Shown here piece by piece: positions 18,500-37,061 of a stretch of DNA of 64,000 nucleotides. Position 1 is the stretch's first letter; every line of letters starts with the position of its first letter. The stretch is from an uncultured Clostridia bacterium (GTDB taxonomy: Bacteria > Bacillota > Clostridia > Christensenellales > UBA1750). Under the pieces are notes generated by a model. It saw nothing but the letters and a program-made list of their open reading frames with translations, made no database searches and had not been told where the DNA came from. The translations under genes were made by a program, and so were the position numbers. The stretch lies in assembly GCA_947625765.1 (NCBI GenBank), contig CANQPP010000001.1, forward strand, positions 71,763 to 135,762. The letters run 5' to 3'.

Positions 18500-18769
18500 T
18501 CAACGTTCTTTCTTACTCAAGTATGGGTTGTACTCCGGCATCTCGTAAATGTCGATAATCTTGTGATCTTCGTTGTAATACTGGAACTGCACAGCGTTGA
18601 ACCAATCAGGATAGCCGAAGAGTTTAATCCAAGAATAGTTCTCCGTGATTTTAATTCCATCTACCGGGTAGACCGTCAGATAATCCAGCTTCTTTGCCAT
18701 CTCAACATCCCATGAGAACCCATTATTGGGATACAAGAACATGGCATATACAGGCTCGACTGTTTTCAT
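18500..18769 (-). CDS. Hypothetical protein
   Basis: 89 aa from ATG 18769 with a strong AGGAGGAG SD. Rich in aromatic residues (WIKLFGYPDWFNAVQFQYY); probably a small globular domain. No family recognised. Located between the PARP-like gene and the modification cassette. Confidence 0.55.
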   Translation of the reverse strand: MKTVEPVYAMFLYPNNGFSWDVEMAKKLDYLTVYPVDGIKITENYSWIKLFGYPDWFNAVQFQYYNEDHKIIDIYEMPEYNPYLSKKER

Positions 18770-18791
18770 TTTGCTCCTCCTTTCTGCGTTG

Positions 18792-19796
18792 CTAGACTTT
18801 AATGAGGTATTCCATTTTAATCGCCACTGGAGCTTCCGCGCTCTTTGCGGCTGCCTGAGAGCAGATAGCTATGTAATGGTCGTCGTTCTCTGCGAGTGGA
18901 TAATCACGCGCATCTTCCATCGGCACGCCCAAGCAAACCCTTGACCACCAGACATAATCTCTTCCGCTAAGAATGCAGAGCCGCTCCGTGCAATCTTCGT
19001 ACTGTTTCAGTTTCTCGTAGTAAGCGTCGTTCAAGGGCTGATTTACTACGCGCCACGCCTTCTGGAATCGCCGCGCTAATACTTTTCCAAGAAGCCCTTT
19101 AATTTGCTGCTCTTCCTGCGGCGATACTTCCGACATGCTCACACCGTACATATCCATCACAGAGATGTTCATGTCCTCGTTGTTCATCTGGAAATACTCC
19201 TGCTCTTTCTGATCCATATCAAACTCGCCCTTTGCCAGACTTAAAAGCGATTTCTCCCGGACGATGATGGTCGAATAATCGCGGGGAGAGACTGCAAGCA
19301 GCGCTGCCATATTGTCCGTCCTGCGCGGCATCACTTGACACAGATAGATAATCGCGCTGTTGAACTCCACTAAGTCCTCGATGTCGGCCATGCAAGCAAT
19401 CACATCATCCGCTTCCTGGATTTGCTCTGGGGTCATACGCCTGGCGGGCGTGAGATACGTAGACGCGAACGTTTTCTTCGCTGCGTCACGCAGCTCAACG
19501 ACCACGCTTGGGTATGGGCCGCGCCGTTTTGCTATGATGCCCGTGGCGCGGAACACATCGGTCTGATCTGTATAACCTTTTCTTTTGCGGGCGTTATAGA
19601 TGCGATCCCAGTTGTAAATCGGGTGCTTTGTAATGACGTTTTTGTAGCCCGTCGTGCCCGCGATCGTAGTGAACTCTTCCCCGTTCGGAATCATGCGGTA
19701 GAATCTAAGTTTACCGTCCTCTTCCTTCACAAAGTATTTCTCTTCGTATGGAATCTGGTTCGGTCTCTTGGTCGGCATGCTCTTTCTTTCGCTCAA
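18792..19796 (-). CDS. WGR-domain, PARP-like ADP-ribosyltransferase homologue (catalytic residues altered)
   Basis: 334 aa from TTG 19796 (GGAGG 7 nt upstream). Residues about 15-85 (FYRMIPNGEEF ... TKHPIYNWDRIYNARKRKGYTDQTD) fit a WGR domain. About 125-200 (RRMTPEQIQEADDVI ... AIIYLCQVMPRR) resembles the PARP regulatory helices (kLskrQIqka ... LxnxfYxxIP). About 245-330 (WRVVNQPLNDAYYEKLKQ, ERLCILSGRDYVWW, YIAICSQAAAKSAEA) resembles the PARP catalytic start, but the NAD-binding HG is SG, so activity is doubtful. It lies just after the structured RNA and terminator, so read-through may set its expression. The PARP link is by eye and moderately certain. Confidence 0.55.
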   Translation of the reverse strand: MSERKSMPTKRPNQIPYEEKYFVKEEDGKLRFYRMIPNGEEFTTIAGTTGYKNVITKHPIYNWDRIYNARKRKGYTDQTDVFRATGIIAKRRGPYPSVVVELRDAAKKTFASTYLTPARRMTPEQIQEADDVIACMADIEDLVEFNSAIIYLCQVMPRRTDNMAALLAVSPRDYSTIIVREKSLLSLAKGEFDMDQKEQEYFQMNNEDMNISVMDMYGVSMSEVSPQEEQQIKGLLGKVLARRFQKAWRVVNQPLNDAYYEKLKQYEDCTERLCILSGRDYVWWSRVCLGVPMEDARDYPLAENDDHYIAICSQAAAKSAEAPVAIKMEYLIKV

Positions 19797-19810: not shown

Positions 19811-19839
19811 TGAAATAAAAGAACAGGTCGGAAACCTGT
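19811..19839 (-). terminator. Rho-independent terminator between structured RNA and PARP-like gene
   Basis: Minus strand ACAGGT-TTCCG-ACCTGT hairpin followed by TCTTTTATTT. It lies only about 15 bp upstream of the SD of the 19796 gene, so it could end the non-coding transcript or act as an attenuator. Confidence 0.75.
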
Positions 19840-20134
19840 CGTTTTCGGTATGGGATTTAAAAAGGTAGGGGAGATGTTGTTCCTCCTAATCGGCTTCGCA
19901 ATTTGAAAGGAGGAGGAAAATAGGAGGTTCACAGTACGCCATATCCGCTCATTCACACTTAGGACAAAAGGAGGATTTTTGAAGCCGATTAGTGACTATC
20001 GCAGCCGCCGATGTGTGAGAGGAACAACGATCTCCGACGCAAATCATTGCGCTTACCTACTGGTGGGCCTTGAAGGAATCGAACCTTCGTTTACCAGACT
20101 AAAGACCCATGTATTTGCCGCCTTCCCTAGCGAC
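19812..20134 (-). ncRNA. Structured non-coding RNA / leader with tRNA-like element and anti-SD loops
   Basis: About 320 nt between promoter P2 and a terminator, with no convincing ORF. From 5': a 48-nt tRNA-like fold (20108-20061); strand one of a 16-bp helix (20035-20019, one bulge), which pairs with 19885-19870; strand one of a 12-bp helix (19992-19981), which pairs with the directly adjacent 19897-19886. The enclosed 83-nt loop contains three CCTCC sequences, including CCTCCTTTC (19917-19906 region), identical to the anti-SD end of Firmicutes 16S rRNA. A 26-nt asymmetric insert lies between the helices. It may be a stand-alone RNA or a leader controlling the downstream gene. Confidence 0.65.
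20061..20108 (-). other. 48-nt tRNA-like element without anticodon arm
   Basis: Minus strand: acceptor GGGTCTT pairs with AAGGCCC (7 bp, one G-U) followed by encoded ACCA. The T arm is GAAGG-TTCGATT-CCTTC with the canonical TTCGATT loop. Only 13 nt (TAGTCTGGTAAAC, D-loop-like with GG) lie between acceptor and T arm, so no anticodon arm exists. It could be a processed minihelix, a tRNA relic, or an attP core copied from a host tRNA 3' end, since a recombinase gene lies 150 bp away. Confidence 0.6.
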
Positions 20135-20140
20135 AGTGTT

Positions 20141-20192
20141 ACTATAGCATGTCACTCCCTCTTGCAACAACGCTTTTTGAAAAATTTTCTCA
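20141..20192 (-). promoter_or_regulatory. Promoter P2 for the structured RNA
   Basis: Minus strand: -35 TTGTTG (20165-20170), 18-bp spacer, -10 TATAGT (20141-20146), preceded by GAAAATTTTTCAAAAAGC. Same design as P1. Predicted start near 20134, 26 nt before the tRNA-like element. Confidence 0.78.
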
Positions 20193-20228
20193 TTTACTAT
20201 TGTCAAAACTATTTATGGGCAAACAGAT

Positions 20229-21199: not shown

Positions 21200-21250
21200 A
21201 GTATATTACCATAAATTACCCATGTCAATACCTTCTGGAAAATTTTCTCA
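21200..21250 (-). promoter_or_regulatory. Promoter P3 for the recombinase-like gene
   Basis: Minus strand: -35 TTGACA (21223-21228), 17-bp spacer, -10 TATACT (21200-21205), preceded by TGAGAAAATTTTCC. Near-consensus sigma70 plus the shared AT-rich upstream element. Start about 60 bp before the gene's ATG. Confidence 0.85.
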
Positions 21251-21254
21251 CTTT

Positions 21255-21752
21255 CTATTGCAAAATCTTTTCAAGGTCATTAGAAATAATGGTGTCCTCG
21301 AACGGGTAAAAGCGCGGGTCGCCTTCGTTGCCAAAATCATCTATGGCTACTACATCCAGTTCTCCGTTAGAAAAAGAAAGATACGCCGTGCCATGAGAAA
21401 GAGTTTGCCACGGATCGAACCAACAATTCACCTTACTGTCGTCAATAATAAAGCGGCCATTGACCAACATATCACGCAGCCCATCATTGCAGACGTAATC
21501 TTCCGGCGACTCCGCAGGATCATCCATCTCGGCCAGCAGATTATCCATCATAGTTTTCTCCGTAGCTAAGAATAACTTCCCCTCTTTAGAAAACACCAAA
21601 TAGAGGGGAGGCTTTGTGAAAGCACAGCAGTATTCTTCCACGCTGTCCGGCCCGATACCGAAGGGAACATACTCAGACACCTTAAAAAACACATTCCCGT
21701 TCACGTTCCTCAACCACTCCAGAAAACCATCCCGACGCAGACTAAACTTCAT
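21255..21752 (-). CDS. Hypothetical protein
   Basis: 165 aa from ATG 21752 with GGAGG 8 nt upstream; the open frame further up is leader. Resembles SMI1/KNR4-like small domains in layout (YLVFSKEGKLFLA, DGLRDMLVNG), but this is too weak to call. Preceded by a strong promoter and a 5' hairpin at 21801-21836. Confidence 0.5.
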   Translation of the reverse strand: MKFSLRRDGFLEWLRNVNGNVFFKVSEYVPFGIGPDSVEEYCCAFTKPPLYLVFSKEGKLFLATEKTMMDNLLAEMDDPAESPEDYVCNDGLRDMLVNGRFIIDDSKVNCWFDPWQTLSHGTAYLSFSNGELDVVAIDDFGNEGDPRFYPFEDTIISNDLEKILQ

Positions 21753-22395: not shown

Positions 22396-22578
22396 CTAGG
22401 CAATCAGATTGTACTTGTTAATCATCCGCTGAGCCGTTAGGATGTTTACTTCGTGGCACGGCACAGAAACCACATCATTCCCGCGCTTCCATATAATGTG
22501 GCCTCCTTTCATTCTCACCTTCTCAAACCCGTTCTGCTTGAGCAGCTTTTGAAAAGTCCTTGGGGTGTAAGTTGTCAT
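22396..22578 (-). CDS. HicA-like mRNA interferase domain protein, no HicB partner
   Basis: 60 aa. Layout FQKLLKQNGFEKVRMKGGHIIWKRGNDVVSVPCHEVNILT matches the HicA (YcfA) dsRNA-binding fold with the active His after GG (GSH in the family, GGH here) and the conserved VPxH. HicA cleaves mRNA and is normally neutralised by HicB encoded next to it; none is adjacent. It overlaps the upstream gene by 56 nt. It may be a solitary phage effector or a host-directed regulator. Confidence 0.72.
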   Translation of the reverse strand: MTTYTPRTFQKLLKQNGFEKVRMKGGHIIWKRGNDVVSVPCHEVNILTAQRMINKYNLIA

Positions 22579-36227: not shown

Positions 36228-37030
36228 ACTACATATTAAAAACATCGATTATGCATGACGCACAATATACAAGGCGCGACAGGGATCGCGTATATTTTAT
36301 AGAGCGTTACGTTTTATCATCAATGTTCTAATTTTAATAACTATTTCCCAAAACGCGAATAGCTCTAAATGGCCGCGCAAGCCCAAGAAAGAAAGAGCAA
36401 GAATGGCGCGAAAAGCCTATTTTTAGGCATTCCACAAAATTATAAAAAACTTGCAGTCACAATTAAAAATGCCTCTTTTTTGTATAATCTGTATAATAAT
36501 ATAAAAAATAGAGATAGCGTATACTTTATCAAAACATAGTAGGCCTTTTGAACAAAGCCCTGCCTATATGGGGAGCGGGGTACTTTACATTAAAATTTTT
36601 CAATATGTATAGCTTTAGCTCCTAGCACGTCTTCATCACTCTGAGCCTTCATTTTCCACCCTATTCCTTGCATTTTCCACACGACCCCCTTCTCCCCTTC
36701 CTTTTTAAGTTTCTCATACCTGCTCTGGGTCGTGTTCCCGCCCCCGTTTATTCCAGAATAAAACTGCCAAGCACACTTAATAACACACATTCTTATTAGC
36801 TTTCTGGGGTACATGAGCACTATGCTGAAACCGGGCAGTTTTATATTAAGTTTATGTTAATAGAACTTATGCTTTATAAAATATTTTTCTTCGAGAAATC
36901 AAGAACTATTATGTTGATTCACCAATCTGGTTATGCACCGGGCTACTCTCTTTATTCACTGAGACTCAACATACCAACCTCTCGCCCAGAATATATTTAA
37001 CAATAAAAGTTGAGAAATTCCCTCATTTTC
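36228..37030. other. AT-rich gene-poor control region, candidate replication or regulatory locus
   Basis: About 800 bp, strongly AT-rich with several TATAAT-like sequences and A/T runs (36440-36530). It divides mainly leftward from rightward genes. Apart from the weak ORF at 36590-36820 no gene is seen. AT-richness plus divergent transcription is compatible with an origin, but no iterons or DnaA boxes were identified. Confidence 0.35.
36590..36820 (-). CDS. Possible small protein
   Basis: Up to 76 aa; more likely from ATG 36790 (MCVIKCAWQFYSGINGGG). Middle is Lys/Gly-rich (SRYEKLKKEGEKGVVWKMQG). SD is weak and no clear promoter is seen; composition looks protein-like. Low certainty. Confidence 0.3.
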   Translation of the reverse strand: MLMYPRKLIRMCVIKCAWQFYSGINGGGNTTQSRYEKLKKEGEKGVVWKMQGIGWKMKAQSDEDVLGAKAIHIEKF

Positions 37031-37061
37031 TATTGCAATCATTTCCAGCGGAGAGTATACT
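37004..37061 (+). promoter_or_regulatory. Promoter P7 for the integrase
   Basis: -35 TTGCAA (37033-37038), 17-bp spacer, -10 TATACT (37056-37061), preceded by TTGAGAAATTCCCTCATTTT, a divergent form of the shared upstream element. Confidence 0.78.

What the first reader, a model, noticed from the sequence alone, without database searches (positions are those of the whole stretch)
19812..20134. Structured RNA combining a 48-nt tRNA-like element, a two-part long helix and 16S-tail-like anti-SD loops
Promoter, tRNA-like fold with encoded CCA, 16-bp plus 12-bp long-range helices and a terminator form one unit with no ORF. The loop shows CCUCCUUUC, identical to the 16S rRNA anti-SD end, plus two further CCUCC. 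I know of no described RNA with this combination. It might compete with 16S rRNA for SD sequences, bind a tRNA enzyme, or attenuate the PARP-like gene immediately downstream.
Basis: partly seen in the sequence, partly recalled or inferred. Interest (0 to 1): 0.85.

Follow-up and report, generated by a model that had tools for sequence, protein, structure and literature searches.

The report
Phage leader RNA with tRNA mimic
A dormant virus in a bacterial genome appears to encode a folded RNA that opens with a tRNA look-alike lacking the codon-reading arm, and similar look-alikes turn up between genes of other viruses, which suggests that viruses use them as cutting or protecting signals for their messages.

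Summary
On the minus strand (20134 to 19812) lie a promoter, a 48-nt anticodon-less tRNA-like element (TLE) with encoded A-CCA (20108-20061), a 33-bp multi-part helix, an 83-nt loop with four CCUCC (unique in the 64-kb window) and a terminator directly before a PARP-like gene. The window is an SPbeta-like prophage. The RNA promoter shares a repeated, imperfectly palindromic box, in the same register to the -35, with the promoter of the MrpR/YopR-like gene next door, so it probably belongs to the lysis-lysogeny regulon. It is not an attachment-site remnant. No relative of the whole RNA was found, so the long helix has no covariation support. The TLE alone is not unique: anticodon-less TLEs with a short UGGU linker recur in IMG/VR phage contigs, up to ten per contig, mostly between co-directional genes, with compensatory changes in acceptor and T stems. 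Best explanation: the TLE is an RNase P recognition and 5'-end element (a phage analogue of plant mitochondrial t-elements) in a repressor-controlled leader; the anti-SD loop may pair with ribosome binding sites. Transcription, processing and function are inferred.

The parts
20171..20221 (-). repeated, imperfectly palindromic box (CAATAGTAAATGAG...), candidate operator
   Evidence: Same repeat at 21226-21279 before the MrpR-like promoter and at 37015-37038
20141..20170 (-). promoter: -35 TTGTTG (20170-20165), 18-nt spacer, extended -10 TGC-TATAGT (20146-20141); start of transcription near 20134
   Evidence: Sequence; 32-nt register from box to -35 identical to the MrpR-like promoter TTGACA-17-TATACT
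20117..20134 (-). 5' hairpin of the primary transcript, would be removed by RNase P
   Evidence: Fold
20061..20108 (-). anticodon-less tRNA-like element: acceptor GGGTCTT/AAGGCCC, 13-nt linker TAGTCTGGTAAAC, T arm GAAGG-TTCGATT-CCTTC, A73, CCA
   Evidence: Rfam tRNA 30.7 bits; comparison with host tRNA-Met; fold
20019..20060 (-). 5' side of the rod: GTAGG, hairpin GCGCAA-TGAT-TTGCGT, GGAGAT, GTTGTTCCTC
19981..19992 (-). 5' arm CTAATCGGCTTC of the 12-bp helix
19898..19980 (-). 83-nt loop with four CCUCC (one of them in CCUCCUUUC, 19911-19903)
19865..19897 (-). 3' side of the rod: GAAGCCGATTAG-GAGGAACAAC-ATCTCC-CCTAC
19812..19840 (-). intrinsic terminator, stem 19840-19822 and T-rich tail
18792..19796 (-). 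PARP-like gene directly downstream (TTG start, SD GAGGAGG)
   Evidence: phrog_23333 E 2.4e-7; 22.9% identity over 155 residues to the PARP-annotated protein of Cellulophaga phage phi4:1
20266..21132 (-). MrpR/YopR-like gene upstream, candidate repressor
   Evidence: PF22822 MrpR_N_CB E 7.3e-5 but below the curated cut-off; no PHROG or NCBIfam match

Best explanation
The RNA is a repressor-controlled early leader of an SPbeta-like prophage. Shown by sequence: a repeated box in front of its promoter and of that of the adjacent MrpR-like gene; a TLE that keeps what RNase P reads (acceptor and T stem of 12 bp together, T loop UUCGAUU, A73-CCA) and lacks what decoding needs; a long helix; a terminator just before the first gene. 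Inferred: the TLE folds first, host RNase P cuts between 20109 and 20108, and the TLE with the following rod forms a protected 5' end. The terminated form is a stable small RNA whose CCUCC loop can pair with SD sequences; the readthrough form leads the PARP-like/replication block. In other phages the same type of TLE sits between genes and most likely acts as RNase P punctuation that leaves a structured 5' end on the downstream message.
For: TLE above the tRNA gathering score with anticodon arm missing; acceptor and T stem pairing kept through changes relative to host tRNA-Met; TLE is the stable fold of the growing chain up to about 280 nt. RNase P cuts hairpins made only of acceptor stem, T stem and T loop and pairs with RCCA (PMC11143913). 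Class evidence: 36 descriptor hits against 7.7 on average and 15 at most after permuting acceptor strands; 20 of 22 selected elements intergenic, 18 of 20 with a same-strand upstream and 20 of 22 with a same-strand downstream gene; compensatory changes. Box shared with the MrpR-like promoter; in SPbeta, MrpR binds repeated elements at prophage promoters (PMC10516654). Terminator adjacent to SD and start. Four CCUCC in the loop.
Against: No expression data. In the finished readthrough RNA the equilibrium fold prefers another partner for the 5' acceptor strand (in the terminated RNA the difference is only 1.6 kcal/mol). No relative of the whole RNA, so no test of the long helix. No compact TLE in the portions examined of SPbeta, Sundance, KKP_3916 and 949. 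Most class members lack CCA and the long rod, so transfer of function is by analogy. The class statistics include some false hits inside real tRNAs, and the covariation sets were picked for pairing.
Confidence: 0.5

Rival explanations
1. Trans-acting small RNA: the TLE is only a stabilising cap, and the anti-SD loop represses translation of phage or host mRNAs in the style of C-rich-loop small RNAs of Firmicutes.
For: Own promoter and terminator; four CCUCC in one loop, unique in the window; loop AUUUUCCUCCUCCUUUC complementary at 16 of 17 positions to the ribosome binding site of the second downstream gene (18769).
Against: Predicted duplexes with 94 prophage start regions are unspecific (mean -19.5 kcal/mol; the gene at 18769 gives -27.2, which several others reach). 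The PARP-like gene depends on the same transcript, because there is no room for another promoter.
Confidence: 0.25
2. cis attenuator: ribosome, protein or metabolite binding to the leader decides between termination at 19840-19822 and readthrough into the PARP-like gene and the replication block.
For: Terminator lies between promoter and gene, 20-odd bases before the start codon; the acceptor strand has a downstream competitor AAAUCCCAU, hence two near-isoenergetic folds.
Against: The competing folds do not involve the terminator stem, which forms in both; no antiterminator found; no Rfam riboswitch or leader match.
Confidence: 0.2
3. The TLE is a functionless relic: a deleted phage tRNA gene, or the tRNA fragment of an integration site.
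For: Acceptor like host tRNA-Met, T arm identical to clostridial tRNA-Lys. tRNA fragments at integration sites are common (PMC9897764). A second degenerate tRNA-like sequence lies about 44 kb away.
Against: Single copy in the contig and inside the prophage, whose edge carries a large serine recombinase about 26 kb away. Both acceptor strands, U8/A9, GG and CCA are kept, and the T stem pairs despite changes on both sides. The same compact form recurs in other phages.
Confidence: 0.12

Closest known systems
t-elements of plant mitochondria (tRNA-like processing signals in mRNAs; from own knowledge)
   Same: Partial tRNA fold without decoding function, next to genes, expected to be read by tRNA-processing enzymes
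   Different: Here in a prophage, with the whole acceptor and T arm, encoded CCA and a long downstream rod; cleavage not shown
Minimal RNase P model substrates (acceptor stem + T stem + T loop, such as AT1; PMC11143913)
   Same: Same 7+5 bp stacked stem, T loop and 3' RCCA
   Different: Natural sequence with an added 13-nt linker holding GG; embedded in a longer RNA
tmRNA tRNA-like domain
   Same: Acceptor and T arm with a D-loop remnant and no anticodon arm
   Different: No tag reading frame and no insertion between the halves; ARAGORN and Rfam do not call tmRNA
MrpR/SPBRE regulon and the AimX ncRNA of SPbeta (PMC10516654)
   Same: Recombinase-fold regulator gene, repeated palindromic boxes at promoters, a phage ncRNA linked to the lysis decision
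   Different: Different box sequence; RNA lies after, not before, the regulator gene; no similarity to AimX was tested
GOLLD and ROOL RNAs
   Same: Structured non-coding RNAs of phages, often near tRNA genes (own knowledge)
   Different: Much larger; no Rfam match here

Membership tests
tRNA (RF00005) | Model score above gathering threshold | tested here: met
   30.7 against 29 bits
tRNA (RF00005) | Anticodon arm | tested here: not met
   Only 13 nt between acceptor and T stem; ARAGORN none
t-element-like RNase P processing signal | Acceptor and T stem with T loop and no decoding arm | tested here: met
t-element-like RNase P processing signal | Cleavage by RNase P in the cell | not testable with these tools
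   Needs 5'-end mapping or in vitro cleavage
tmRNA | Tag reading frame and the tmRNA fold | tested here: not met
   No ARAGORN or Rfam call
Integration-site tRNA remnant | Second copy at the other prophage end, next to the integrase | tested here: not met
   Single copy in the contig; serine recombinase at the edge. The right-hand edge lies beyond the contig end
C-rich-loop small RNAs of Firmicutes | Unpaired C-rich anti-SD motifs | tested here: inconclusive
   Four CCUCC, two of them mostly unpaired in the predicted ensemble, the one in CCUCCUUUC partly paired
MrpR regulon of SPbeta-like prophages | Repeated palindromic operator at promoters, bound by a recombinase-fold repressor | tested here: inconclusive
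   Repeated box yes; protein match below cut-off, fold prediction failed, binding untested

The most novel reading that the evidence does not exclude
Tailed phages of several lineages carry a class of anticodon-less tRNA mimics (acceptor, UGGU linker, T arm, often a following hairpin) that act as RNase P punctuation between genes; this prophage has built one into a repressor-controlled leader RNA with anti-SD loops, so that host RNase P and ribosome binding sites help to shape early gene expression.
Probability: 0.35. Interest if true: 0.85.

Novelty: new variant of a known kind. Interest (0 to 1): 0.62.

Why it matters
tRNA punctuation is textbook knowledge for mitochondria, but I found no description of anticodon-less tRNA mimics used that way in phages (searches of open-access papers only). 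If right, phages recruit host RNase P, which cells cannot easily lose, to cut and protect their messages, and the elements are overlooked because tRNA finders need an anticodon (ARAGORN calls none in L036, L146, L174 and L181; Rfam's gathering threshold misses them too). The prediction is directly testable by 5'-end mapping and in vitro cleavage.

Tried and rejected
Attachment-site remnant: rejected. tmRNA, GOLLD, ROOL, riboswitch: no Rfam match. Coding on the plus strand: a 107-aa ORF at 19979 with SD AAAGGAGG runs antisense through the TLE and has no Pfam match. Homologue searches that found no relative of the RNA: INPHARED blastn, neighbour proteins in IMG/VR (12, 13), PARP-like protein in 396 genomes of the order, TLE pattern in IMG/VR (16) and in 291 genomes of the class, RNA in plasmids. 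DNA matches in 101 and 391 genomes were tRNA T arms or weak chance matches. Searches are void: the pattern had one N too many and missed the window's own genome. AlphaFold of the MrpR-like and PARP-like proteins without alignment: mean pLDDT 39 and 34, not used. Target prediction for the loop: unspecific. Compact TLEs in portions of SPbeta, Sundance, KKP_3916 and 949: none. The consensus promoter scan missed the promoter.

Full report
What the window is. The window is C1:71763-135762 of a 2.5-Mb draft genome; C1 has 155,297 bases. Its left part is host chromosome (SMC, TrkA, YjeF). At about 64.5-66.1 kb stands a large serine recombinase, and from there on the contig is phage: anaerobic NTP reductase, PolIII alpha, primase-helicase, exonuclease, Sak annealing protein, methylases, then terminase, portal and tape measure. 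Portal relatives are Alicyclobacillus KKP_3916, Brevibacillus Sundance, the Lactococcus 949 group and Bacillus phages, so this is a large SPbeta-like prophage.

The RNA. On the minus strand, after a MrpR-like gene (PF22822 core-binding domain, E 7e-5 but below its cut-off) and a G+C hairpin, comes a promoter with an extended -10. The first base should lie near 20134. Then follow a hairpin, a 48-nt TLE (20108-20061), a rod of 5+6+10+12 bp, an 83-nt loop, an intrinsic terminator (19840-19822) and, after the SD GAGGAGG, the TTG start of the PARP-like gene at 19796. The fold is better than that of shuffles (z -2.95 for the whole, -3.4 for the rod).

The TLE. Rfam's tRNA model aligns to it end to end while skipping the D stem and anticodon arm. 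It keeps U8, A9, a linker with GG, the T loop UUCGAUU and A73-CCA. Its acceptor resembles that of the host tRNA-Met (GGGCCTT/AAGGCCC); position 4 changed from C to U but stays paired with G, and the T stem differs on both sides at two pairs and still pairs. Its T arm is identical to that of clostridial tRNA-Lys, so the exact parent is open. It is the first large structure of the growing chain and persists to about 280 nt. The finished RNA has a competitor, the 5' acceptor strand pairing with AAAUCCCAU; it is better by only 1.6 kcal/mol in the terminated RNA but dominates the readthrough ensemble. The energy model does not count the D-loop/T-loop contact.

The promoter belongs to a set. A repeat lies before the RNA promoter (20168-20221), before the MrpR-like promoter (21226-21279) and at 37015-37038 ahead of an integrase-family gene. 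In the first two, the distance from CAATAG to the -35 is exactly 32 nt. The copy at 37035 reads CAATAGAAAATGAG...CTCAACTTTTATTG, an imperfect palindrome. In SPbeta, MrpR, a recombinase-fold repressor, binds repeated elements in prophage promoters and keeps lysogeny (PMC10516654), and there too a stem-loop and a palindrome follow the yopR gene, then other early-region genes. That the neighbour protein binds this box is inference.

The TLE is one of a class. Scans of IMG/VR for a spacing from UGGU to the T loop that is too short for a tRNA, read with a descriptor for acceptor and T stem, gave 36 hits, where permuted acceptor strands gave 7.7 on average and at most 15 in 300 trials. Some hits overlap real tRNAs and are false. 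A hand-picked set of 22 from 14 contigs is intergenic in 20 cases; 18 of 20 have a same-strand gene upstream and 20 of 22 downstream. L152 has ten copies, L248 four, L036 three, L069 at least three. Copies within one contig differ in acceptor and T stem but still pair, and in several families a short hairpin follows directly. Eight copies from L248, L432 and L146 give a consensus of just the acceptor and T stem, with 11 of 12 pairs changed on both sides in some copy; this is biased because paired copies had been selected. GTDB genomes also hold a few (Lactobacillus L442, a Clostridia MAG L432), but there the enrichment is slight (5 against a mean of 1.3 and a maximum of 4).

Mechanism. Bacterial RNase P cuts minimal substrates made of acceptor stem, T stem and T loop, and pairs with RCCA (PMC11143913). 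The most likely role of the TLE is therefore an RNase P site whose product begins with a base-paired 5' end. The loop with four CCUCC is unusual for this genome, so pairing with SD sequences is plausible; no specific target stands out, although the ribosome binding site of the second downstream gene (18769) matches at 16 of 17 positions. The readthrough transcript would lead the genes towards replication. Shown: anatomy, repeated box, class enrichment and placement. Inferred: transcription, cleavage, stabilisation, SD pairing, repression.

Limits. No expression data are at hand. Two late pattern scans were mis-specified and count for nothing.

Noticed in passing
L152, L248, L036, L146, L432, L069 (IMG/VR and GTDB loci): Families of anticodon-less tRNA-like elements, two to ten per contig, between co-directional genes and in several families followed by a short covarying hairpin.
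   Followed up: partly
20168-20221, 21226-21279, 37015-37038: Repeated, imperfectly palindromic box at three promoter regions, candidate operator of the MrpR-like protein.
   Followed up: partly
about 64239 (+), just outside the window (contig C1 about 136001): Degenerate tRNA-like sequence GTTCCCATAGCTC...GGCTGGGGACGAGC with a D arm and T arm but a poor anticodon arm, not called by ARAGORN or by the Rfam tRNA search of the genome.
   Followed up: no
15830-14792 (-) and 17780-17260 (-): A second PAPS-reductase-like gene and a Dam-like methylase gene are each split over two overlapping reading frames that match consecutive parts of one profile: frameshifts, by mutation or by assembly.
   Followed up: partly
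22396-22578 (-): HicA-type toxin gene (PF07927, E 1.1e-9, above cut-off); an antitoxin partner was not looked for.
   Followed up: no
L491 45855 (+), Lactococcus phage 949: Unannotated tRNA-like sequence with a 26-nt middle part, and several other unannotated tRNA-like sequences in the same cluster.
   Followed up: no
18768-18784 (-): Ribosome binding site of the 89-aa gene starting at 18769 is complementary at 16 of 17 positions to the CU-rich loop of the RNA.
   Followed up: partly
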